A stretch of 58,450 bases of DNA from Chloroflexota bacterium (GTDB lineage: Bacteria > Chloroflexota > Anaerolineae > Aggregatilineales > Phototrophicaceae): NCBI GenBank assembly GCA_028875185.1, contig JAPPFH010000054.1, forward strand, positions 1 through 58,450, written 5' to 3'. A program made the position numbers and the translations under genes. The notes under the pieces were generated by a model, which saw nothing but the letters and a program-made list of their open reading frames with translations, made no database searches and had not been told where the DNA came from. This document shows, in pieces, positions 14,354 to 23,881 of the stretch (positions are counted from its first letter, which is position 1; the number at the start of each line of letters is the position of its first letter).

Positions 14354-16168
14354 CTAATCGAAATACGCCGACGCTTCGTGAATGAACAAATGGTCGCTGT
14401 ATATTCGCCGGGCTGGAATCGGATTGCCCTCGGCATCCACCTGATCGGAATAAATCAGAATGGGATCGCCATTGTCGTCCAATTGAACGTGACCGGCTTC
14501 AATCAGAACGCTGTCCCAACTCACAACCCAGTCCAGACGCTTCAAGCCCGCCTGATTGTCCGTGATGACCAGCGCGCCCCAGACGTTAGGCAATTCCTTG
14601 GGCTCGGCCTCCAGGTGATGCGCGAACTCCTCCATCACCCGCATCAACGTTGGCGCCTCAGCCGCCGGGATCGCGCGGAAACGCAGCGGCAACTGATTCG
14701 CGCCAACGTGCTGGTCTTTCAATTCCGTAATCATCTGCTCATATTGACCGTTCGCAGCCACTTCGGCATTGATCGCGGCAATCGCATCGCTCACCGACAT
14801 TTCGTCGGGATAATGCAGCTGCGCCGTCGTATACGCGCCAACGATCATCTGATCGAAAGGAATCGTCCTCCCGATGCCGACCTTGCTATGCGCCGGCTCA
14901 AAGGTCAACTCATGCACGATTTCGGTCTCGGCTGAGGTCTGCACCGCGAACTTCGCCAGCCCCATATAACTCAATATCGTCGATACCGAAATCAGCAGAC
15001 AAGCGAGCGTCAACATGAAACGGCGATGGGCGTAACGCCGGCTTGGCGTCACATCGAGATAAGGCAGCAGCGCCAAACCACCCAGCGCGATCGTGGGGAA
15101 AGCCACGCCCCAGAAGAACTTGTCGCCCAGCTTCAGCGCGCCCTGAATCCACAAGAAATACCAGGGCGCCGTCGTGCCCAGCGGCGTCACTTGCGGGTCG
15201 GCGTGATTCTCCAGCGGGGCATGATAAAACCAGATGCAAAGCACAGTGATGATGAAGGTTGTCGCCCCCAGCCACATCATTTCATAAGTCAGCATGTCGG
15301 GGATGAAATAAACGCGTTTGTCCAGCGGTACGCGCTTGGCTGTATCCTCGCCAATATTCTCCTTCTGCGGCGGCAGGCTGTGACCATGAATCACCACCTT
15401 GTAATAATGAACGCCGAAGAAGACGAAGAGCAGGGCGGGCAGCGCAAGCACATGCAGCAGATAAAAGCGCAGCAAACCGTTCGCGCCCAATTCCGGCGCG
15501 CCCCGCAGCAGCAGATTGACCTGCTCGCCAACCACCGGCGTCGCTTCCGCCATCGACGCGCCAATTGTCACCGCCCAAAGCGACAGCTGATCCCAAGGCA
15601 GCAGATAACCCGAGAAACTCAAAAAGCCCGTAATAACAAGTAGTAACAGACCGGTGAACCAGGTGAATTGGCGCGGCTTCTTGTACGAACCCGTAATCCA
15701 CGTTCGCATCATGTGCATCGCCACCACCGCCACCATGAACTCGGCGCCTAGGCGGTGCATATCGCGCATCAACTGACCCAGCGGCACATTGCTCAGAATC
15801 GTCAGCATATCGCCATAAGCGATCTCCGGCGACGGCGTATACCAGAGCATCAGCAAGATGCCCGTGATCGTCTCGAAAAAGACAAAATAAGAAGACAGCC
15901 AACCCAGCCGGAAGGTCGGATACATGCCCGTCACATCGCGATTGAAGTAAGACGGGCGCATGTGCAGCCAAAAGCCGTCGGCATGCGGCGTCAATCGCGG
16001 ATTCGGCCGCCGGCTCGCCGCTTCGCCGCGGAAAGCCTCGCGCAAGTCCTGAACATTCAAGCCCGCGGTCAGGCGCTCGACCGAATCATCTATGCCTTCA
16101 AAGACCGCTTTCTTGAAGCCTTTTTCCTTGACGTCATCGAGAAAAGACGGGAAGGGGAGGATGGTCAT
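14354..16168 (-). CDS. cytochrome b, b6 and subunit IV fused, with C-terminal extension
   Basis: This has 604 residues. The heme-ligating histidines are H138/H152 and H239/H254. Their 14 and 15 spacing is the b6f pattern rather than the mitochondrial one. The subunit IV-like half follows in the same chain; its quinol-site motif reads APWY at 334-337 instead of PEWY. After the last membrane helix (about residue 420) comes a soluble extension of roughly 180 residues without a CxxCH motif. The start has AGGAGC upstream. It forms the quinol-oxidising core with the Rieske protein encoded just upstream. Confidence 0.9.
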   Translation of the reverse strand: MTILPFPSFLDDVKEKGFKKAVFEGIDDSVERLTAGLNVQDLREAFRGEAASRRPNPRLTPHADGFWLHMRPSYFNRDVTGMYPTFRLGWLSSYFVFFETITGILLMLWYTPSPEIAYGDMLTILSNVPLGQLMRDMHRLGAEFMVAVVAMHMMRTWITGSYKKPRQFTWFTGLLLLVITGFLSFSGYLLPWDQLSLWAVTIGASMAEATPVVGEQVNLLLRGAPELGANGLLRFYLLHVLALPALLFVFFGVHYYKVVIHGHSLPPQKENIGEDTAKRVPLDKRVYFIPDMLTYEMMWLGATTFIITVLCIWFYHAPLENHADPQVTPLGTTAPWYFLWIQGALKLGDKFFWGVAFPTIALGGLALLPYLDVTPSRRYAHRRFMLTLACLLISVSTILSYMGLAKFAVQTSAETEIVHELTFEPAHSKVGIGRTIPFDQMIVGAYTTAQLHYPDEMSVSDAIAAINAEVAANGQYEQMITELKDQHVGANQLPLRFRAIPAAEAPTLMRVMEEFAHHLEAEPKELPNVWGALVITDNQAGLKRLDWVVSWDSVLIEAGHVQLDDNGDPILIYSDQVDAEGNPIPARRIYSDHLFIHEASAYFD

Positions 16169-16197
16169 GGCTGCTCCTGGTCGTTAAGCCAGCGGCG

Positions 16198-16797
16198 CTA
16201 AGGGTGTATCGCGCCGATGATGCGCGCGCCCGTGTCTATCTGTATGCTGGTGATCTGCCGCTCCGGGTCCAGCGGAATCGCCCCGCCATCGGTCGGCGTC
16301 TCGACCGTCGTGCCATCGGCATAAGTCACCGTGGCAATGAAGCGATCCAGATGCCGTGGCGCCGGTCCTTCAATCCAGGTTCCGCTCAATTGGAATTTCG
16401 ATCCATGGCAGGGGCACTCGAAGCGATTATTGGTCGGCACCCATTTGGGCAGGCAGCCCAGATGCGTGCAGACGCCATACAGCGCGCGCAAGCCCTCGGT
16501 CGTCCGCGTCACATGGAAGCGCCCGGCCGGCACACTCGTCGGCGCCGCGCCCACCGCCGGCAGCTCCTCGGGATTGAAAGCGAAGGCGCCGCCGAACTCG
16601 CCCTCTTTGAAGCGCGGGAATGCGAACCAAATCAGCCCAGCGGACGATTGCCCCAGCAGCAGGGCAATGGAAGCGCCCCAAATATAGTAAAGGAACTCGC
16701 GCCGGCTGGGCGCCGCCACCTGGACGCTCGGCCTGGCCGCCGCCCGCGCGACCGGCGCGCTTATCGCCGTTGGATTGGTGCGTTCTGCTGTTGCCAT
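16198..16797 (-). CDS. Rieske iron-sulfur protein
   Basis: The N-terminal membrane helix (about residues 35-60, after a basic segment) anchors a Rieske domain with both cluster-binding boxes, CTHLGC and CPCHGS, about 17 residues apart. It takes one electron from quinol at the cytochrome b site and passes it to a cytochrome c. I prefer the ATG at 16797 (MATAERT) over 16818. It is the first gene of the minus-strand complex III operon, followed by cytochrome b and two cytochromes c. Confidence 0.92.
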   Translation of the reverse strand: MATAERTNPTAISAPVARAAARPSVQVAAPSRREFLYYIWGASIALLLGQSSAGLIWFAFPRFKEGEFGGAFAFNPEELPAVGAAPTSVPAGRFHVTRTTEGLRALYGVCTHLGCLPKWVPTNNRFECPCHGSKFQLSGTWIEGPAPRHLDRFIATVTYADGTTVETPTDGGAIPLDPERQITSIQIDTGARIIGAIHP

Positions 16798-16983
16798 AAG
16801 CTGTCGTCGTCCTTCCATTCCAAGGGGACTTCAAGCGTCATTTCGCCAGCAAATAGTGTCGCGTCAATATAACGATTTTCCGATAGTTAAATATATCACA
16901 ATCGAAGCGGGAGTTACAAGTCAAATGTTTTGGGGATTCAGTGTAGAATATCCTACAGCATTAACCCGCCGAAAGCATGCCCA

Positions 16984-18747
16984 ATGCCGCCAATCACCAT
17001 CCAGCCGAATGATCGCTACCTCACGCGATACTATAGCACCATCAAGGAATTGCGCGCTGCCCAGGTCAAGCCGACCGAAGGCAATATGCGCCGCGCATTC
17101 GGTACGCTGTTGACCGGTCTCGGCCGCCGCCGCAAGCTGACCCTGATTGACGAATACGCCACGCAAGGGCAGGGCAAAAGCCATATCCGGCCCGATGGCG
17201 CGCTGGTCGACGAATGGAAGCGCCCCTTCGCCTTCTGGGAAGCCAAAGATAGCAGCGACAATCTCTACGCCGAAATCGAAAACAAGAAGGCGAAGGGATA
17301 CCCCCTCGACAACATCATTTTCGAGGACACGGTTACCGCCGTCCTCTATCAAGACGGCTACGAAGCCCGCCGCACCCACATCCGCGAAAAAAATAACTTC
17401 GCCGCGCTGCTGACCCAATATCTCAATTACAAGGAACAAGCTCGCCAGAATTTCAACGAAGCCGTCCAATCTTACGGCGAGCAAATCCGCGACATTGCGA
17501 CCCAGCTAAAAGAAAAGATCGACGCCGCCCACCAAGACAACCCCGAATTCCAGCGCCAGTTCGACGAATTCATGGACCTCTGCCGCCGCTCGCTCAATCC
17601 CAATATCAGCATTGAAGCGGTCGATGAAATGCTCATACAGCACCTGATGACCGAGCGAATCATCCGCCGCGTCTTTGATGTCGCCCACTTCACCCAAACC
17701 AACGTCATCGCCGCCAAGATTGAAGAAGTCATACGCGCCCTCACCAGTTCTTATTTCAGCCGCTCTGACTTCTATGGTAGCTTGCACCGCTTTCACCAAG
17801 CCATCGAAGACGCCGCCGAAGACCTCGATTTCAGCGACAAGCAGACCTTCATCAACTCCGTCTACGAGAAATTCTTCCAAGGCTACAGCGTCAAAGTCGC
17901 CGACACCCACGGCATCGTCTACACGCCCCAAGAAATCGTCGATTTCATGTGCGCCGCCGTCGAAGAGGTGCTGGAAACCGAGTTCGGAAAGAAACTCGGC
18001 GATGAAGGCGTCGTCATCATCGACCCGGCCACCGGCACCGGCAATTTCGCCGTCAACCTGCTGCGCCGCGCTCATGCTCGGAATCTGCGCAGCTTTGAAG
18101 ACTTTTACAAAAAACGCCTCTTCGCCAACGAAGTCATGCTCATGCCATATTACATCGCCTCGCTTAATATCGAGCGCGAATACTACGAGCTCACCGGACG
18201 CGCCGCCCCCTTCGAGGGGCTCTGCTTCGTCGACACCCTCGATCTCGCCCGCGAGCGCCAGATGACCTTCCTCACCGAAGCCAACACCGAGCGCGTCGAG
18301 CGCCAGAAAGCGGCTGACATCAACGTCATCATCGGCAACCCGCCGTACAATGTGGGCCAGGTCAACGAGAATGACAACAACAAGAATCGCAAATACGATG
18401 TCATCGACAAGCGCATCCGCGAGACCTACGCCAAAGATTCAAAGGCGACCAACAAGAACGCGCTCAGCGACGTCTATGTCAAGTTCTTCCGCTGGGCAAC
18501 CGACCGGCTGGGCGATAGACCCGGCATAGTGTGTTATGTCAGCAACAACAGCTTCGTCGACCAGTACGCCTTTGACGGCATGAGAAAGCACATGCTCGAA
18601 GATTTCGACCGCGTCTATCATCTAGACTTGCACGGCAATGTCCGCCAGAATCCCAAGATCAGCGGCACGACGCACAATGTTTTCGGCATCCAGGTCGGCG
18701 TTGGCATTACCTTGGCAATCCGCAAAGGGCAAGGCGGAGCCGCTTGA
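16984..18747 (+). CDS. type ISP/IIG-like restriction-methyltransferase, N-terminal part
   Basis: The 588 residues hold an Mrr-like nuclease domain with a PD-ExK pattern (Asp71, EAK at 86-88), a helical linker, and an N6-adenine methyltransferase with motif I DPATGTGNF (about 347) and motif IV GNPPYN (about 450). No helicase domain is present, so the layout fits a single-chain type IIG/ISP-like enzyme. The protein stops right after GVGITLAIRKG, where the specificity half should begin; that half lies at 20248-21762 beyond about 1.5 kb of cargo. The fragment may still methylate poorly or not at all without its recognition domain. Start chosen at MPPITIQP. Confidence 0.8.
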   Translation: MPPITIQPNDRYLTRYYSTIKELRAAQVKPTEGNMRRAFGTLLTGLGRRRKLTLIDEYATQGQGKSHIRPDGALVDEWKRPFAFWEAKDSSDNLYAEIENKKAKGYPLDNIIFEDTVTAVLYQDGYEARRTHIREKNNFAALLTQYLNYKEQARQNFNEAVQSYGEQIRDIATQLKEKIDAAHQDNPEFQRQFDEFMDLCRRSLNPNISIEAVDEMLIQHLMTERIIRRVFDVAHFTQTNVIAAKIEEVIRALTSSYFSRSDFYGSLHRFHQAIEDAAEDLDFSDKQTFINSVYEKFFQGYSVKVADTHGIVYTPQEIVDFMCAAVEEVLETEFGKKLGDEGVVIIDPATGTGNFAVNLLRRAHARNLRSFEDFYKKRLFANEVMLMPYYIASLNIEREYYELTGRAAPFEGLCFVDTLDLARERQMTFLTEANTERVERQKAADINVIIGNPPYNVGQVNENDNNKNRKYDVIDKRIRETYAKDSKATNKNALSDVYVKFFRWATDRLGDRPGIVCYVSNNSFVDQYAFDGMRKHMLEDFDRVYHLDLHGNVRQNPKISGTTHNVFGIQVGVGITLAIRKGQGGAA

Positions 18748-18772
18748 TTCGCTTTGGACTTTGAGATACAAT
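18744..18772 (+). promoter_or_regulatory. sigma70-type promoter at the cargo boundary
   Basis: TTGATT at 18744-18749 and TACAAT at 18767-18772 are separated by 17 bases. It overlaps the stop of the truncated methyltransferase gene and faces the small cargo genes at 18891 and 19044, giving them their own expression. Confidence 0.5.
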
Positions 18773-18890
18773 TCGATTAGTGGAATCAGACTGAGGAGAA
18801 AGCATGGCAGCGCAGGCTCAGGCCGGGCAAATAGAAGCCAATCCAACACCGTAAACAAATCTTCAGCGCATCATTAGAGTTGAATCTACC

Positions 18891-19031
18891 ATGCCGCAGT
18901 TTGCAACCAAGGCGGATATGGAGCGGCAAACCAGGTTGATCGTGATGTGGTTCATCGCCACGCAGATAGGTCTTTTCGCTGGCTTGAGCGGCCTGATTAT
19001 GCTCGCTCTGCGTCTGGCTGAACTTATCTAG
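18891..19031 (+). CDS. 46-residue membrane protein in the methyltransferase cargo
   Basis: Begins MPQFATKADMERQ, then a single membrane helix of about 25 residues. The ATKAD-plus-helix layout resembles the very small DUF1640-like coiled-coil membrane proteins common in bacteria. It is followed after 12 bases by the next small membrane protein, which also contains ATKAD, so the two may be partners. A still shorter frame with a GGAGAA site (18804-18854, 16 residues) precedes it. Function unknown. Confidence 0.5.
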   Translation: MPQFATKADMERQTRLIVMWFIATQIGLFAGLSGLIMLALRLAELI

Positions 19032-19043
19032 GAGAAGCCGCCG

Positions 19044-19361
19044 ATGTCCGATGATTCTCTACAGCAGACTCGCATTGCTCATTTGGAGCAGACCGTCCAG
19101 CATTTGCGCGAACGCCTCGCCGCCTTGGAAGCTGTCCAGCCTCACATGGCGACCAAGGCAGATGCCATACGGTCGAGCTGGCTACCGCATATCAGAATCA
19201 GCATCGGAAGAGGCAAGCGCAAGCATGAGTCCGGCCCGTCGTGGATAAGCAATGACGCCAATCTTCTATTAGCAATTATTGCTGCGGGCATTATCGGTGT
19301 ATTTGTGGGTTCTGGCTTTTCTCATGTGATTAAGACGCTAGCGATGCTGCTCGCCCAGTGA
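19044..19361 (+). CDS. coiled-coil plus membrane-helix protein in the methyltransferase cargo
   Basis: This has 105 residues: an N-terminal coiled coil (about residues 10-35, LEQTVQHLRERLAALEAV), an ATKAD motif, a basic middle, and a C-terminal membrane helix (NLLLAIIAAGIIGVFVGSGF). An AGGAG site lies 10 bases upstream, overlapping the previous stop. It looks like a genuine gene carried within the interrupted restriction locus. No function can be assigned. Confidence 0.55.
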   Translation: MSDDSLQQTRIAHLEQTVQHLRERLAALEAVQPHMATKADAIRSSWLPHIRISIGRGKRKHESGPSWISNDANLLLAIIAAGIIGVFVGSGFSHVIKTLAMLLAQ

Positions 19362-19369
19362 CCGTATGA

Positions 19370-19462
19370 AGCGGCGAGTTGAGCGGCGTGACGCAAAACG
19401 TCTTCGGCATTCAAGTTGGCGTCGGGATAACGCTGGCGATACGGACGCGGAAAGACATTTAG
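19370..19462 (+). pseudogene. fragment of a second, diverged ISP methyltransferase gene
   Basis: This piece encodes SGVTQNVFGIQVGVGITLAI and then stops, repeating the end of the N-terminal methyltransferase part (SGTTHNVFGIQVGVGITLAI). The protein text is nearly identical but the DNA differs mostly at third codon positions, so it is a homologous scrap from another allele, not a recent local duplication. It lies between the two cargo segments and just before the reverse-strand genes. Confidence 0.75.
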
Positions 19463-19884
19463 AGGTTGTATTGTTTTGCTGGGGCTTTGCGCTCAAGGAA
19501 TATGAATAAATCATTATCATCTTCTTCGCGAAGAGAATACTTTATCCCGTTTCCAAAGATCGTGTGTCTTACTTCAAACTCGTTTGGGACCAAGTCAAAA
19601 TACTGCTCAAAGCCGGCTCCGTACTGGAAGAACATTCTAGCGGGAACTGGCCAAGGTTTCGCTGGCATAACAAATAGACTAATATATATAGATTCGCCAA
19701 GTTTGTCGAGCAGAGCGGCCAGTCTCGGGGCTTTTTTCCCAAGTTGTGGCGCGAGAGATTTGATCGCATCCCGGTAATGCTTCGCTTTATCGGGAGCAAT
19801 TCTAAACTCATCCCATTTTACGGTCTGTATGCACATATAGATATTCTGCGCTAGATCCGGCGTCATCTCTCTGTCAGTCATCAT
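19459..19884 (-). CDS. hypothetical protein in the methyltransferase cargo
   Basis: About 141 residues from the ATG at 19884 (MMTDREMTPD), mixed alpha/beta, with no signal peptide or membrane helix. Its start overlaps the end of the gene upstream on the minus strand, so the two are coupled. The GC content is visibly lower than in the flanking methyltransferase halves, which suggests an imported cassette. No domain is recognised. Confidence 0.55.
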   Translation of the reverse strand: MMTDREMTPDLAQNIYMCIQTVKWDEFRIAPDKAKHYRDAIKSLAPQLGKKAPRLAALLDKLGESIYISLFVMPAKPWPVPARMFFQYGAGFEQYFDLVPNEFEVRHTIFGNGIKYSLREEDDNDLFIFLERKAPAKQYNL

Positions 19885-20116
19885 TATCCGTTCTAAAACC
19901 CATCTGCGGTTTGGGAGGAATCTCAAAATGAGCGAGAATAGCGTCCAAAGCTGCTTTTATGGTGCTGACATCTTCTTCCAAGCGGGAGATAGACTCTTCC
20001 ATTCGAATCTGCGTGAGCGCGGTCACATTCATCCCTTCCAATATGCTATCCTGCGCTTTACGCAAACTTAGATACTCCGCTTTCAGCCGCTCGATTTCAA
20101 TGTCTCTCGTGAACAT
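19874..20116 (-). CDS. short coiled-coil protein in the methyltransferase cargo
   Basis: About 80 residues from the ATG at 20116 (MFTRDIEIERLK), with AGGAAAAG about nine bases upstream and a perfect TATAAT on the minus strand at 20147-20152. Nearly the whole protein is predicted coiled coil. It overlaps the downstream hypothetical gene (ATGATG within the final codons). A longer reading to 20245 exists but has no good start signal. Function unknown; a two-gene regulatory or toxin-antitoxin-like module is possible but unsupported by motifs. Confidence 0.55.
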   Translation of the reverse strand: MFTRDIEIERLKAEYLSLRKAQDSILEGMNVTALTQIRMEESISRLEEDVSTIKAALDAILAHFEIPPKPQMGFRTDNDD

Positions 20117-20247
20117 AGTTTCGACTTTTCCTACTTTTCGAATTGAATTATATTTCAAGTATATGCGGTCTGCGTTCAAAAGTCTATTCCCGTTTTCTTG
20201 AGGGATAGCCAACATACAAGACCGATCGCGCATAGCTTGAGACAACT

Positions 20248-21762
20248 ATGACTCGCCTCTTCTACCACCGCCTCCCAGACTTCGACCGCAAAGAAACCAA
20301 ACTCGATTTCCTCAGCGAAAACAGCCTCAGCAGCGTCGATTGGAAGCGCCTCGTCCCCAACACGAAACACACCTGGCGCCGCACCGACACCGAAGATGAA
20401 TTCGCCTCCTACCTCCCCATCGGCAGCAAAGAAGCCAAACGCGCCAAACCCGATCAGATTGATACGATCTTCAAGACTTATTCAGGCGGTGTAAAAACCA
20501 ATCGCGATGTCTACGTTTATGATTTCCAGTTTGACGCACTGGCGACGCGTATGAAGCAATTTGTCGACGACTACAATAGCCAAGTGGACAAATACAAGCG
20601 GCAGAATCCCAAACCCGACGTCGATGACTTTGTAGATTATCGCAAGTTCGCGTGGAGCAGGGATCTTAAGTTAGACTTGCAACGCGGAAACTATGCACAG
20701 TATTCGACTCTCAAACTCCGAGACAGTCTCTTTAGACCTTTCGCAAAAAGGCATCTGTTTTTTGACCGTACATTAAACGAGGAAGTTTACCAGCAGCCGG
20801 CTTACTTCCCAAACGAGCAGTCCGAATCAGAGAACGTACAACTAAGTATTGGCTCGGTGGGCATTGAAAAGCCATTTTATTCTGTCGCCGTTAATTCAAT
20901 ACCAAATCTTTCATTCGTTGGATTTGGCGGAGCTTGCCAATGCTTCCCCTTCTACACATACGACGAAGACGGGGGAAACCGCCGCGAGAACATCACCGAT
21001 TGGGCACTCGACCAATTCCGCTCCCACTACGACGACCCCGCCATCTCCAAGTGGGACATCTTCTACTACGTCTACGGCCTCCTCCACCATCCCGGCTACC
21101 GCGAACGCTACGCCCTCGATCTCAAACGCAGCCTGCCCAGAATACCGTTTGCGCCCGCCACCCCAAACCTTTCCTCGACGGGTCAGCGTCTACGCGACCC
21201 CACAAGGAGTGAGGGGCTTTCGTCTCGTATTGCGAATACGCCAGAATCTTGCTCCCCTTCCCTCATTTTGGGGGAAGGGGCCGGGGGATGGGGGCAATCA
21301 AGCGCCTTCCACGCCTTCTCCCGCGCCGGCGCGCAACTCGCCGACCTCCACCTCAACTACGAATCCGTCGAGCGCTACGAGCTCAATTGGCAATCCACGC
21401 GCACGCCGGTCAGCTACCGCGTCGAGAAGATGCTGCCCAAGGGCAAAGTCGATTCCGCCGAAGGCAATTACAAGGTCTACAGCACGCTCAAATACAACGA
21501 CACCTTAACCCTGCATGGCATCCCCGAGCGCGCTTTCGCTTATCGCCTCGGCAACCGCTCCGCCCTCGATTGGATCGTCGACCAGTACCGCGTCAAAACC
21601 GACAAGCGCAGCGGCATCACGCACGACCCCAACGGCTACAGCGACGACCCGCAGTACATCCTCAAGCTCATCGAGCGCGTCATCACCGTCAGCCTGCGCA
21701 CGGTCGACATCGTTGAAGAACTCGCCAAGCTGCCCTTCCGCGACGAGTCCGCCGACGATTGA
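20248..21762 (+). CDS. type ISP restriction-modification enzyme, C-terminal specificity part
   Basis: The 504 residues continue the methyltransferase gene cut at 18747. The start TRLFYHRLPDFDRKETKLDFL is the usual sequence after the conserved GITLAIR region, and WDIFYYVYGLLHHPGYRERY with LHLNYE and YRVEKMLPKGK are hallmarks of the type ISP C-terminal specificity domain. Residues about 303-353 (21157-21306) are encoded by a repeat insertion that separates RIPFAP from FHAFSRAG without shifting the frame. Standing alone it lacks catalytic motifs. It might complement the N-terminal half in trans if expressed. Confidence 0.8.
   Translation: MTRLFYHRLPDFDRKETKLDFLSENSLSSVDWKRLVPNTKHTWRRTDTEDEFASYLPIGSKEAKRAKPDQIDTIFKTYSGGVKTNRDVYVYDFQFDALATRMKQFVDDYNSQVDKYKRQNPKPDVDDFVDYRKFAWSRDLKLDLQRGNYAQYSTLKLRDSLFRPFAKRHLFFDRTLNEEVYQQPAYFPNEQSESENVQLSIGSVGIEKPFYSVAVNSIPNLSFVGFGGACQCFPFYTYDEDGGNRRENITDWALDQFRSHYDDPAISKWDIFYYVYGLLHHPGYRERYALDLKRSLPRIPFAPATPNLSSTGQRLRDPTRSEGLSSRIANTPESCSPSLILGEGAGGWGQSSAFHAFSRAGAQLADLHLNYESVERYELNWQSTRTPVSYRVEKMLPKGKVDSAEGNYKVYSTLKYNDTLTLHGIPERAFAYRLGNRSALDWIVDQYRVKTDKRSGITHDPNGYSDDPQYILKLIERVITVSLRTVDIVEELAKLPFRDESADD
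21157..21306. repeat. in-frame composite repeat inside the ISP specificity domain
   Basis: About 150 bp (50 codons) inserted in frame. The left part holds a palindrome with GGGTC and GACCC arms around GTCTAC. The right part (21252-21294) is a G-rich family B element, with CCCCTTCCCTC pairing with GGGGGAAGGGG and then CCGGGGGATGGGGG. It encodes a low-complexity peptide containing SPSLILGEGAGGWG, a text also seen when family B elements are translated elsewhere. Confidence 0.7.
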
Positions 21763-21812
21763 TTTCCCTCTGTGTCGCAGGTCAGTGTCCATGCAACCCG
21801 CGGTGTTCCCTG

Positions 21813-21821
21813 TGTTAAAAT
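21813..21821 (+). promoter_or_regulatory. extended -10 promoter of corA
   Basis: TGTTAAAAT (TGn plus TAAAAT) ends seven bases before the corA ATG at 21828. A start of transcription at the usual distance would fall on or beside the ATG, suggesting a leaderless message. No -35 match is seen. Confidence 0.4.
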
Positions 21822-21827
21822 ACCCCC

Positions 21828-22745
21828 ATGACCACCCGCGAAATCACCCACGACAACACCACCTGGATCGACATCATCCACCCCTCCGCCGAAGACGTCG
21901 CCGCCCTCCACGCCCGCTATCCCGCCTTCCACCCGCTCAACCTCGAAGATATCGTCAGCCCCATCGAACGCCCCAAGCTCGATCAAGACGACCGGTACCT
22001 CTTCCTCGTCATGCACTTCCCGCTCTGGGATTCCCGTGACGAGCTCTCCCGCCCCAGCGAAGTCGATTTCTTCCTCGGTCCCGATTATGTCGTCACCGTG
22101 CACAACGGCGCGCTCAAACCCCTCGCCTTTGCCTTCGAGCGCTGCCAGACCAATGCCGAGGCGCGGGGGCAGCTTCTAGGGCAGGGCGCCAATCAACTCT
22201 TCCACGCCCTCATTGATCAGCTTGTCGATTACATCTTCCCCATCCTCAACAAGGTTGACCGCCGCGTCCACGCCATCGAAGACGCCCTCTTCGAATCGGA
22301 CGCCAAGCGCGTCATCCAGGAGCTCGCGCTGCTGCGCCGTGATATCATTTCTCTGCGCCGCATCATCCGGGGGCAGATTCCCATCATCCTGCAGCTCGAA
22401 ACCTGCGATCACCCCATCCTGCACGAGCACATGGAAGAGTACTTCGGCGATATTGCCGACCACCTCTTCAAGCTGCGCGATATCGCCGATGAGAACTTCG
22501 AAATCGTCAACAGCTTCGCCGATACCGCCGATACGTTGGCGAGCTACCGCATCAACGAGGTCATGCGCATCCTCACCGTCATCTCGGTCATCATGCTGCC
22601 GCTGACGCTCATCTCCAGCATATACGGCATGAATATCAATTTGCCCTTCGCTGACGACCCCCACGCCTTTATCATTACAGCCGCCATCATGCTCCTCATC
22701 GTCATCCTGATGCTCGCCTGGTTTCGCAAACGCCACTGGCTCTGA
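21828..22745 (+). CDS. corA: CorA-family magnesium/divalent metal transporter
   Basis: This 305-residue protein has a large N-terminal cytoplasmic domain and two C-terminal membrane helices. The first ends in the signature YGMN (SIYGMNINLPF), the selectivity motif of CorA pentamers, and the chain ends with the short basic tail RKRHWL. It imports Mg2+ and sometimes Co2+ or Ni2+. It is the first of three closely spaced plus-strand genes; the RNase D gene starts nine bases after its stop. Confidence 0.93.
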   Translation: MTTREITHDNTTWIDIIHPSAEDVAALHARYPAFHPLNLEDIVSPIERPKLDQDDRYLFLVMHFPLWDSRDELSRPSEVDFFLGPDYVVTVHNGALKPLAFAFERCQTNAEARGQLLGQGANQLFHALIDQLVDYIFPILNKVDRRVHAIEDALFESDAKRVIQELALLRRDIISLRRIIRGQIPIILQLETCDHPILHEHMEEYFGDIADHLFKLRDIADENFEIVNSFADTADTLASYRINEVMRILTVISVIMLPLTLISSIYGMNINLPFADDPHAFIITAAIMLLIVILMLAWFRKRHWL

Positions 22746-22753
22746 TCCCGCCT

Positions 22754-23881
22754 ATGCTCCCGCCCCCCGCCATCATCGACAGCAGCCCCGCCCTCGACGC
22801 CGCCATCGAGCGCCTGACTCCGGCAGAGCGCATCGCAGTCGATACCGAATCCAACAGCCTGCACGCCTATCGCGGAACCACCTGCCTCATCCAGCTTTCC
22901 ACGCCCGCCGAAGACCTGCTAATCGATCCGCTCGTCATCGCCGATGTCAGCGCGCTCGGCGCCATCCTGGCCGACCCCGCCACCGAGAAGGTCTTCCACG
23001 CCGCCGAATACGACCTGATTTGCCTCAAGCGCGATTTCGACTTTGATGTGGCGAACATCTTCGATACGATGGCGGCCGCCCGCGTCTGCGGCATCCAGCG
23101 CATCGGCCTGGGCAATATGCTGGCGGATCTGCTCGGCGTCCGCCACAGCAAGAAACACCAGAAATTCGATTGGGCGCGGCGCCCCCTGCCCGAGACCGCG
23201 CTTCGTTACGCCCAGGTTGATACGCACTACCTGCTGCCCCTGCGCGCGGTTTTGCACGAGCAGCTGCAAGCGCAAGGTCGGTTGGAGGAAGCGCGCGAAT
23301 ACATCGCCGATGTCACCCGCTTCGAGCTGCAATCGCAGGAATTCGATCCCGACGGCTTCTGGACGCTCGCGCGCCCGAATTCGCTCAAGCGGGCACAGTT
23401 CGGCATCCTGCGCGAGCTCTATATCCTGCGCGATGAATTGGCGCAGGCTTATGATCATCCGCCGCAGCGGCTGATCGGCAACAAGGTGCTTATGCAAATC
23501 GTCAATCTGCAGCCGCGCTCCGTCAAACAGCTTTACGACATCCGCGGGCTGCCGGCTTGGCTGCTGCGTCAAAGCGGCGATGAAATCATCCAGGCTGTGC
23601 GTCACGGCGCTTCAAGCCGCCTGCGGATCGCGCGTCCAAAGCAAGAGCCGATCCCGCAGACCATCGTCGACCGTTATAGCGCGCTGCACAACTGGCGCCG
23701 CGATACTGCGGACGCGCGCGGCGTCGAATCCGATGTCATCATTAGCCGGCGCGCGCTCTGGGATATCGCCCGCCGCAATCCGACGAAGGAAAGCGACCTG
23801 GGCGATATCTGCGGCTTGGGTCCCTGGCGTCGCCGTACCTATGGCGCGGACCTCGTCGCCGTCGTCATGCGTTGTCGCTAG
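22754..23881 (+). CDS. rnd: ribonuclease D
   Basis: This 375-residue protein has a DEDD-type 3'-5' exonuclease domain: VDTESNSLHAY (Exo I), a HAAEYDLICLKR segment (Exo II), and YAQVDTHYLLPL (Exo III with Tyr). An HRDC domain occupies about residues 210-290, and a C-terminal helical region follows. RNase D trims the 3' ends of tRNA precursors. Length and layout are normal. The Nudix gene begins five bases after its stop, so the two are probably co-transcribed with corA. Confidence 0.92.
   Translation: MLPPPAIIDSSPALDAAIERLTPAERIAVDTESNSLHAYRGTTCLIQLSTPAEDLLIDPLVIADVSALGAILADPATEKVFHAAEYDLICLKRDFDFDVANIFDTMAAARVCGIQRIGLGNMLADLLGVRHSKKHQKFDWARRPLPETALRYAQVDTHYLLPLRAVLHEQLQAQGRLEEAREYIADVTRFELQSQEFDPDGFWTLARPNSLKRAQFGILRELYILRDELAQAYDHPPQRLIGNKVLMQIVNLQPRSVKQLYDIRGLPAWLLRQSGDEIIQAVRHGASSRLRIARPKQEPIPQTIVDRYSALHNWRRDTADARGVESDVIISRRALWDIARRNPTKESDLGDICGLGPWRRRTYGADLVAVVMRCR

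What the first reader, a model, noticed from the sequence alone, without database searches (positions are those of the whole stretch)
18748..20247. Type ISP restriction-methyltransferase gene split by two cargo cassettes with a diverged scrap between them
The gene is cut exactly after the conserved GVGITLAIR region. A cassette with its own promoter and two small membrane proteins follows. Then comes a 93-bp piece of a different ISP gene encoding the same region, then two reverse-strand genes, then the C-terminal half. The repeated piece matches at protein level but differs at third codon positions, so it came from another allele. The order looks like cassettes entering through homologous exchange at one conserved spot, which could be a defence-locus hot spot for unknown small genes.
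Basis: partly seen in the sequence, partly recalled or inferred. Interest (0 to 1): 0.72.

Follow-up and report, generated by a model that had tools for sequence, protein, structure and literature searches.

The report
Restriction enzyme repeatedly split by cassettes
In a group of uncultured Chloroflexota bacteria, one DNA restriction-methylation gene is cut again and again at the same loop by small gene cassettes, apparently without destroying it in most cases: the two halves seem to be kept as partner proteins, so the cut point acts as a natural docking site for new genes and new DNA-recognition halves.

Summary
Confirmed and extended. Window 16984-21762 holds one restriction-methyltransferase gene cut after GVGITLAIR by two cassettes with a scrap of another allele between them. 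It is not a chimera. In the window's genus (34 genomes) the same gene occurs at 15 loci in 14 genomes: 9 split at the same codon with varying inserts, 1 with its C-half on another contig, 5 fused across this point. Of 80 loci from many phyla, 6 (2 from this genus) are interrupted there. The cut falls between two predicted strands. Chosen pairs show low dN/dS in both halves, and N and C co-occur in 14 of 14 genomes, though 3 of 9 split C-halves look damaged. The scrap is the 3' end of a former N-half once joined to cassette 2, as it still is in G402. The enzyme is DrdV-like Type IIG, without the Type ISP helicase. Cassette 1 belongs to a genus-specific family of small coiled-coil membrane proteins that elsewhere often lie beside DNA methyltransferase genes (26 of 40 copies, 1 of 40 controls; 7 of 13 collapsed clusters). 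Best reading: a two-chain enzyme whose hinge is an insertion-tolerant exchange point. Function is inferred, not shown.

The parts
16984..18747 (+). N-half: PD..EAK nuclease-like motif (my reading), ISP-type coupler, N6 methyltransferase up to the strand GVGITLAIR; own stop TGA
   Evidence: ISP_coupler 3.8e-16, N6_Mtase 7.2e-10; DrdV 4.7e-118; REase_MTase_IIG 2.4e-135
18724..18747 (+). hinge / split point: 7-codon tail after AIR, then stop; corresponds to the loop between two predicted strands in an intact relative
18744..18772 (+). sigma-70-like promoter TTGATT-17-TACAAT of cassette 1; the N-half stop TGA lies inside the -35 hexamer
   Evidence: same layout in 5 of 7 inserts that begin with such a gene
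18804..19031 (+). cassette 1, first small gene (A2 family, coiled coil + hydrophobic tail); in-frame TAA at 18852-18854, open from ATG 18891 (46 aa)
19044..19361 (+). cassette 1, second small gene, 105 aa, coiled coil + hydrophobic tail; counterpart in G400 at the same place (about 50% identity)
19373..19462 (+). scrap: 3' end of the N-half of another allele, collinear with cassette 2 as in G402
19459..19881 (-). cassette 2, r142: 140-aa protein without a match in Pfam, NCBIfam, PADLOC or PHROGs; dN/dS 0.22-0.28
19874..20116 (-). cassette 2, r123 (A4 family): 80-aa coiled-coil-like protein ending PPKPxxGFxT, dN/dS 0.18-0.21
20117..20247 (.). divergent intergenic region between r123 and the C-half, conserved in G402 and G414a; presumed promoter of the C-half
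   Evidence: function inferred
20248..21762 (+). C-half with its own ATG: LFYHR strand, target recognition domain and C-terminal part (Type_ISP_C 1.7e-92)

Best explanation
The locus encodes a DrdV-like Type IIG restriction-methyltransferase that has been fissioned at a loop between the strand GVGITLAIR and the strand LFYHR. The N-half (nuclease, coupler, methyltransferase) and the C-half (last strand plus target recognition domain) are made as two chains that very probably reassemble, much like the RM and S subunits of BcgI or BsaXI. Because a break in this loop is tolerated, DNA landing there survives. Everything to the right of the hinge (cassettes plus C-half) is exchanged between alleles as a block, which swaps DNA specificity. 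In the window a N'+cassette-1 block was stacked upstream of a resident block [end of the old N-half + cassette 2 + C-half], leaving the scrap as a fossil of the old N-half. Shown: recurrence at one codon, allele origin of the scrap, its collinearity with cassette 2, purifying selection on both halves, N/C co-occurrence. Inferred: reassembly, specificity swapping, and the accessory role of the small proteins.
For: Same split codon in 9 of 15 loci of the genus, 14 of the 15 at one chromosomal spot, and in other lineages with other cargo. Among 71 loci held over both halves, 6 breaks fall in a 30-codon hinge window and 10 elsewhere in about 940 codons (binomial 5e-6; leaving out the two hinge cases of this genus, 4 of 14, 7e-4). 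N dN/dS is 0.084-0.125 in six split pairs and 0.10-0.17 in four pairs with an intact or unlinked member; C 0.22-0.28 in six split pairs and 0.20-0.29 in three others. N and C of this orthogroup co-occur in 14 of 14 genomes and neither is full-length alone in any of the 34. The C-half restarts with ATG, GTG or TTG at the hinge. Scrap+cassette 2 aligns almost without gaps to N-end+cassette 2 of G402 (score 70), and the G414a stub likewise (53; maximum of 2000 shuffles for that pair 17). On the N-half tree of 24 rows the label split needs 5 changes and intact 4. The C-half middle is hypervariable between more conserved ends. The model of an intact relative puts the cut between strands 575-581 and 589-594.
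Against: No biochemistry or expression data. In cassette-2 alleles the C-half needs its own promoter, and none passed the scan. Of the 9 split alleles, 3 C-halves look damaged: G403 stops early, and in G400 and G319 the first part is in another frame than the rest, the break lying at 7-bp repeats (G319 is also cut by the contig end); fused G414b is broken too. Two distant hinge insertions (L151, L159) sit in genes broken elsewhere as well. The whole-chain model is weak overall (pTM 0.51), and strand pairing was read from DSSP, not checked in coordinates. Most genus examples share one ancestral locus, so they are not 9 independent insertions.
Confidence: 0.66

Rival explanations
1. Site-specific mobile cassettes: the small-gene units carry a recombination site resembling GGCATTACGCTGGCGATACGC and are inserted in trans by a recombinase, so arrays form with a copy of the site between units (integron-like).
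For: Insertion exact to a few codons; scraps of the site between successive units in the window and G414a, and a decayed one in G403; arrays in different orders (G319 has an r123-like gene first and then a truncated A2-family gene).
Against: Scraps differ in length (about 84 and 24-41 bp) and are alleles of the N-half, not a fixed site. The cargo at the same point includes unrelated genes (PDDEXK_3, DUF4258/MqsA-like pair, Y1 transposase, PIN). A pattern search for the site in all loci then held found it only at N-half ends and these scraps, not at small-gene copies elsewhere. No recombinase was noticed in the window's ORF list, but none was searched for.
Confidence: 0.13
2. Pseudogene: the enzyme was inactivated by insertion and the halves are decaying.
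For: In-frame stop in the first cassette gene; damaged C-halves in 3 of 9 split alleles; L159 and L151 look decayed.
Against: dN/dS far below 1 in both halves of the split pairs compared; no stops in any of the 17 N-halves compared; N and C retained together even when unlinked in G406.
Confidence: 0.16
3. Assembly chimera in this metagenome-assembled contig.
For: The window is one contig of a 158-contig draft genome.
Against: The same split occurs in 8 further genomes of the genus in the same chromosomal neighbourhood.
Confidence: 0.02

Closest known systems
DrdV restriction-methyltransferase (PDB 7lo5/7lvv; its class, Type IIG/IIL, is recalled)
   Same: Best sequence and fold match over the whole intact relative (1e-195; rank 1, TM 0.44); the two window halves align to DrdV residues 14-572 and 588-1024
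   Different: DrdV is one chain; here the chain is broken at the equivalent of DrdV 573-587 with genes in between
Type ISP enzymes LlaBIII and LlaGI
   Same: Coupler, methyltransferase and C-terminal recognition domain are homologous
   Different: No helicase domain found; the N-half is only 587 aa
Type IIB BcgI/BsaXI (RM subunit + separate S subunit)
   Same: Works-like model: one chain with nuclease and methyltransferase, one with DNA recognition (starts of the abstracts of PMC11997821 and PMC4027205, search listings)
   Different: BsaXI shows only weak fold similarity (12-13% identity); here the split arose inside a family that is otherwise single-chain
EcoKI HsdM-HsdS fusion / M-S malleability work
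   Same: Fused and separate M and S are both active (PMC3510504 abstract; PMC6158711 passages)
   Different: That is engineered fusion of a Type I system; here natural fission of a Type IIG-like enzyme
RM-linked ORFs (PrrC, RloC; rlo inserts in Campylobacter Type I loci)
   Same: Accessory genes inserted in restriction loci (PMC2610378 passages)
   Different: Those lie in loci of separate subunit genes (recalled); here the accessory genes sit inside what is elsewhere one reading frame, and the proteins are unrelated by the family searches made
Domain movement / TRD exchange in methyltransferases
   Same: Specificity block exchanged between conserved flanks (starts of the abstracts of PMC3077401 and PMC3983042, search listing)
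   Different: Here the exchange boundary also carries cassettes and a gene fission

Membership tests
Type ISP restriction-modification enzymes | Single chain with nuclease, SF2 helicase-like ATPase, coupler, methyltransferase and TRD | tested here: not met
   Coupler, MTase and TRD found, no helicase model hit in the window halves; many intact relatives have frames of about 1040-1090 aa
Type IIG / DrdV-like enzymes | Nuclease-MTase-TRD order with homology over the whole length, no helicase | tested here: met
Type IIG / DrdV-like enzymes | Single polypeptide | tested here: not met
   Split in the window and 8 relatives, unlinked in 1; fused in 5 of 15 loci
Type IIG / DrdV-like enzymes | Methylation and cleavage at a defined site | not testable with these tools
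   Needs protein or methylome data
Type IIB (BcgI/BsaXI) | Separate RM and S chains | tested here: met
   Two open frames with their own starts in the window; both halves present in 14 of 14 genomes of the orthogroup
Type IIB (BcgI/BsaXI) | S subunit with two TRDs and bipartite target (recalled) | tested here: inconclusive
   The C-half matches one Type_ISP_C profile in two stretches; the target is unknown
Integron or other site-specific cassette arrays | Fixed recombination site at each cassette end and a recombinase | tested here: inconclusive
   Repeated scraps exist but vary and are N-half alleles; no search for a recombinase was made
Toxin-antitoxin or known defence families (cassette proteins) | Match to curated families | tested here: not met
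   Pfam: nothing below E 0.04 for the four window proteins. NCBIfam and PADLOC, with a G413 homologue standing in for the 46-aa protein: none, except r123 to Csm2 at 0.0015. PHROGs: 105-aa protein to a hemolysin family at 7e-4

The most novel reading that the evidence does not exclude
The small coiled-coil membrane proteins are a new class of restriction accessory, specific to this genus. They ride in or beside restriction-methyltransferase genes and act with them, for instance as membrane tethers for the two-chain enzyme or as effectors released when it is attacked. The hinge would then be a dedicated docking slot, so that specificity half and accessory are exchanged together.
Probability: 0.3. 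Interest if true: 0.8.

Novelty: new variant of a known kind. Interest (0 to 1): 0.62.

Why it matters
Restriction-enzyme evolution is often told as fusion of subunits into single chains (as in PMC6158711, passages). This locus looks like the reverse caught in several stages: fused, split with one or two cassettes, and with the recognition half unlinked on another contig. It marks a point where a Type IIG enzyme can be cut and perhaps given new recognition halves, which bears on the hard problem of engineering specificity. It also points to an unnamed small-protein family tied to DNA methyltransferases.

Tried and rejected
Rfam scan of window 16000-23000 for an intron or RNA element: nothing up to E = 1. 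Own-duplication origin of the scrap: rejected, because it matches G297 and G402 better than the window's own N-half. Assembly chimera: rejected. Structure of r142: model pLDDT 50.6, not used. Viral contigs: 12 relatives, none split at the hinge; for 6 of them my C-half profile found no match, but 5 of those frames run on for 384-493 codons past the hinge and one to the contig end. Family libraries for the cassette proteins: no named family. The decayed scrap in G403 is supported only through its similarity to G414a (score 26, maximum of 2000 shuffles 16); against the N-half ends alone it was not found, and the G414a stub only barely so (20 against 18). Literature: eight searches listed no title or abstract start about a naturally split Type ISP/IIG gene with cargo at this point; they cover only open-licence papers, exact terms and capped listings.

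Limits of the methyltransferase test: the idea came from 20 regions read, and 10 of the 40 sampled copies lie in those regions; of the other 30, 20 have a methyltransferase hit. The 40 copies are the top-scoring ones outside the restriction locus, not a random draw; a second copy in an already sampled region and G396:C40 (already read) were left out. Several regions are shortened by contig ends. The 40 controls lie on contigs of the same sample, 12 kb or more away, and were not collapsed into clusters. In one search I added 11 regions by hand to the positive set (tblastn hits that the ORF list missed).

Full report
WHAT IS THERE. The window is contig C12 (58,450 bases) of a 4.37-Mb draft genome. 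Named records whose contig lengths equal those of genus mates (L101 for G402, L103 for G319) are titled Anaerolineae and Chloroflexi MAGs. The N-half runs from 16984 to 18747 and ends VGVGITLAIRKGQGGAA*. It carries a coupler and an N6-methyltransferase; a PD..EAK nuclease-like motif in RPDGALVDEWKRPFAFWEAKD is my reading. The C-half starts with its own ATG at 20248 and is a Type_ISP_C protein (1.7e-92). Between them lie cassette 1 (two forward genes for coiled-coil proteins with a hydrophobic tail; the first has an in-frame TAA), the scrap, and cassette 2 (two reverse genes, here called r123 and r142).

WHAT ENZYME. The nearest solved protein to an intact relative is DrdV (7lo5, E 1e-195; rank 1 by fold with TM 0.44), and the best PADLOC model for the N-half is REase_MTase_IIG (2.4e-135). 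No helicase domain is found, and many relatives have single frames of about 1040-1090 aa, so this is a DrdV-like Type IIG enzyme that shares coupler, methyltransferase and recognition domain with Type ISP.

NOT A CHIMERA, AND RECURRENT. In the 34 genomes of the genus, the N-half orthologue (at least 64% identity over 111 aa) is found at 15 loci in 14 genomes. Nine are split at the same codon: G000 (window), G402, G414a, G403, G297, G400, G413, G319, G191. One (G406) has the N-half ending there and the C-half, with a cassette-1-type gene in front, on another contig. Five read through the hinge: G371, G417, G412, G399, G414b; G414b is broken later in the C-half, and G412 lies on two contigs. Fourteen of the 15 lie beside the same Rieske/cytochrome b and/or CorA/RNase D genes; G414b does not. 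Outside the genus the same point is interrupted in G304 (a PDDEXK_3 gene), G329 (DUF4258 plus MqsA-like zinc protein), L151 Chloracidobacterium (Y1 transposase) and L159 Thioploca (PIN protein; only remnants of the C-half follow). Of the 80 genome loci (the best 80 of a capped list), 6 are interrupted at the hinge, two of them from this genus; one locus ends before the hinge. Of the 71 loci held over both halves, breaks were 6 in a 30-codon hinge window, 4 in the C-half and 6 in the N-half (two of these in loci also broken at the hinge); binomial 5e-6. Leaving out the two hinge cases of this genus gives 4 of 14, 7e-4; one C-half break (L111 = G414b) of the genus is still counted there. C-half breaks at 371 and 390 codons may be naturally short proteins.

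WHY THIS POINT. In intact relatives this is a variable linker, mostly 21-48 bp between the two profile matches; some carry in-frame repeats there (L032, L105, L149). In the model of the intact relative L115 (17 sequences, mean pLDDT 71, pTM 0.51) the cut lies between strands 575-581 and 589-594, block pLDDT 73-82. I read this as a beta-hairpin of the methyltransferase sheet; if so, the C-half would donate a strand to the N-half and help the two chains hold together. Pairing itself was not checked. For comparison, the recognition-domain core of LlaGI begins at residue 1200 (PMC4872093, passages), and the LlaBIII match to the N-half ends at 1148.

IS THE SPLIT FORM ALIVE? None of the 17 N-halves compared has a stop. 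dN/dS of the N-half is 0.084-0.125 in six split-split pairs and 0.10-0.17 in four pairs with an intact or unlinked member; of the C-half 0.22-0.28 in six split pairs and 0.20-0.29 in three others (chosen pairs, not all). Of 34 genomes, 14 hold both halves of this orthogroup and none holds a full-length one alone. Short C-terminal remnants remain in G398, G391 and G396, and a second one in G319; in G344, G305 and G401 a more distant enzyme of 1623-1654 aa matches both halves in one frame. Against this: of the 9 split alleles, C-halves of G000, G402, G414a, G297, G413 and G191 are fully open, G403 stops early, and in G400 and G319 the first residues are in another frame than the rest, the break lying at 7-bp repeats. 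L151 and L159 sit in genes damaged elsewhere. So most, not all, split forms look maintained.

THE SCRAP. Its best match is the N-half end of G297 (51 of 57 nt; score 45, maximum of 60 shuffles 17). Over 72 nt it matches G402 at 56, G403 at 53, the window's own N-half at 51, G371 at 50 and G191 at 37 (the other rows were not scored there). The decisive comparison is: the G402 sequence running from its real N-half end into cassette 2 aligns with one single-base gap to the window's scrap running into cassette 2 (score 70; no shuffle run for this pair). In G414a a shorter stub sits at the same place between its own, different, cassette-1 genes and cassette 2 (score 53 to G402, maximum of 2000 shuffles 17). 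The region between cassette 2 and the C-half start is also conserved in these three. So the scrap is the tail of an older N-half that used to sit directly before cassette 2; a newer N-half with cassette 1 now lies upstream. Synonymous divergence of r142/r123 (0.53-0.84) is like that of the N-halves (0.53-0.82) in the same pairs, so cassette 2 is an old resident among these three.

EXCHANGE. Nucleotide identity to the window is mostly 80-97% through the middle of the N-half (lower at the 5' end in G402, G417, G403 and G412, and lower throughout in G191), and falls at its 3' end. In the middle of the C-half it is 38-67% in 8 of 9 relatives compared (67-83% in G417), and it rises again towards the end, mostly to 75-92% (not in G403 and G191, with single low windows in others). 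G412 and G417 share a hinge and C-half start although their N-halves are not sisters. On the N-half tree of 24 rows the label split needs 5 changes and intact 4. I infer that hinge plus C-half is exchanged as a block, changing specificity; the crossover mechanism is not shown.

THE SMALL PROTEINS. The cassette-1 family (alignment A2) is present in 33 of 34 genus genomes, 3-12 copies each, and nearly absent from the 64 other genomes of the family searched (3 weak cases). The r123 family (A4) is in 33 of 34 and in none of the other 64. r142 is in 4 of 98 genomes: three at the hinge, one (G407) as a stand-alone pair with r123. Outside the restriction locus, 26 of 40 A2 copies lie within 3 kb of a DNA methyltransferase gene or remnant, against 1 of 40 control stretches (Fisher 6e-10); of the 30 copies whose regions I had not read before, 20 do. 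Collapsing regions with shared neighbours leaves 7 of 13 clusters against 1 of 40 controls (8e-5) (limits under Tried and rejected). For A4, 5 of 16 loci had such a gene within about 1.5 kb, against none of 40 trimmed controls. dN/dS of these small genes is 0.04-0.33 where it could be estimated. No curated family names them. In 5 of 7 hinge inserts that begin with such a gene, the TGA that ends the N-half lies within a sigma-70-like -35 box of the gene's promoter (scores reached by 0.2-3.2% of shuffles); G403 shows the same by eye with a 15-nt spacer, G413 does not. So the cassette often supplies both the N-half stop and its own promoter.

VERDICT. A natural, recurrent fission of a Type IIG enzyme at one loop, used as a docking point by RM-linked small genes and, by inference, by new recognition halves. 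Known in kind (RM malleability, TRD exchange, accessory genes in RM loci), new as a variant. Function of the two-chain enzyme and of the small proteins awaits experiment.

Noticed in passing
L256 5026-6482, L257 5552-7064, L258 1-981: A second DNA methyltransferase in the genus has a poly-G tract (10, 9 and 7 G in L256, L257, L258) where its frame breaks, suggesting phase variation; in all three a cassette-1-type small gene lies close upstream.
   Followed up: partly
L254 1428-3182 and L092 2963-4699 (G406:C37): In G406 the two halves are unlinked: N-half at the usual chromosomal spot directly followed by CorA, C-half with a small coiled-coil gene on another contig, without an N-half scrap seen before it.
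   Followed up: partly
C-half starts of G319, G400, G413 (L094, L097, L098): Runs of a 7-bp repeat (GGCGGCA type) near the start of the C-half; in G400 and G319 the frame changes there, so the recognition half may be phase-variable.
   Followed up: no
window 21172-21300; L089 (G417) C-half start; L032, L105 and L149 linkers: In-frame repetitive inserts (LGEGAGGWGQ / PLPPLPKGEGE type) inside the enzyme, three of them in the hinge linker.
   Followed up: no
L151 2330-3115: In Chloracidobacterium sp. UBA7659 the hinge insert is a Y1-type transposase gene flanked by an inverted repeat (GTTGCAGAAGCCCGCACGAAGTAAGGGCATT), with the C-half restarting at ATG.
   Followed up: partly
L248 4638-5286 (G407), L247 1073-1612 (G411): Beside the same Rieske/cytochrome b genes, in genomes where no orthologue of the enzyme was found, small cassette-1-type genes remain.
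   Followed up: no
L263 4507-5147 (G407:C45): Stand-alone r123-r142 homologue pair with no restriction gene recognised in the 9 kb read around it.
   Followed up: no
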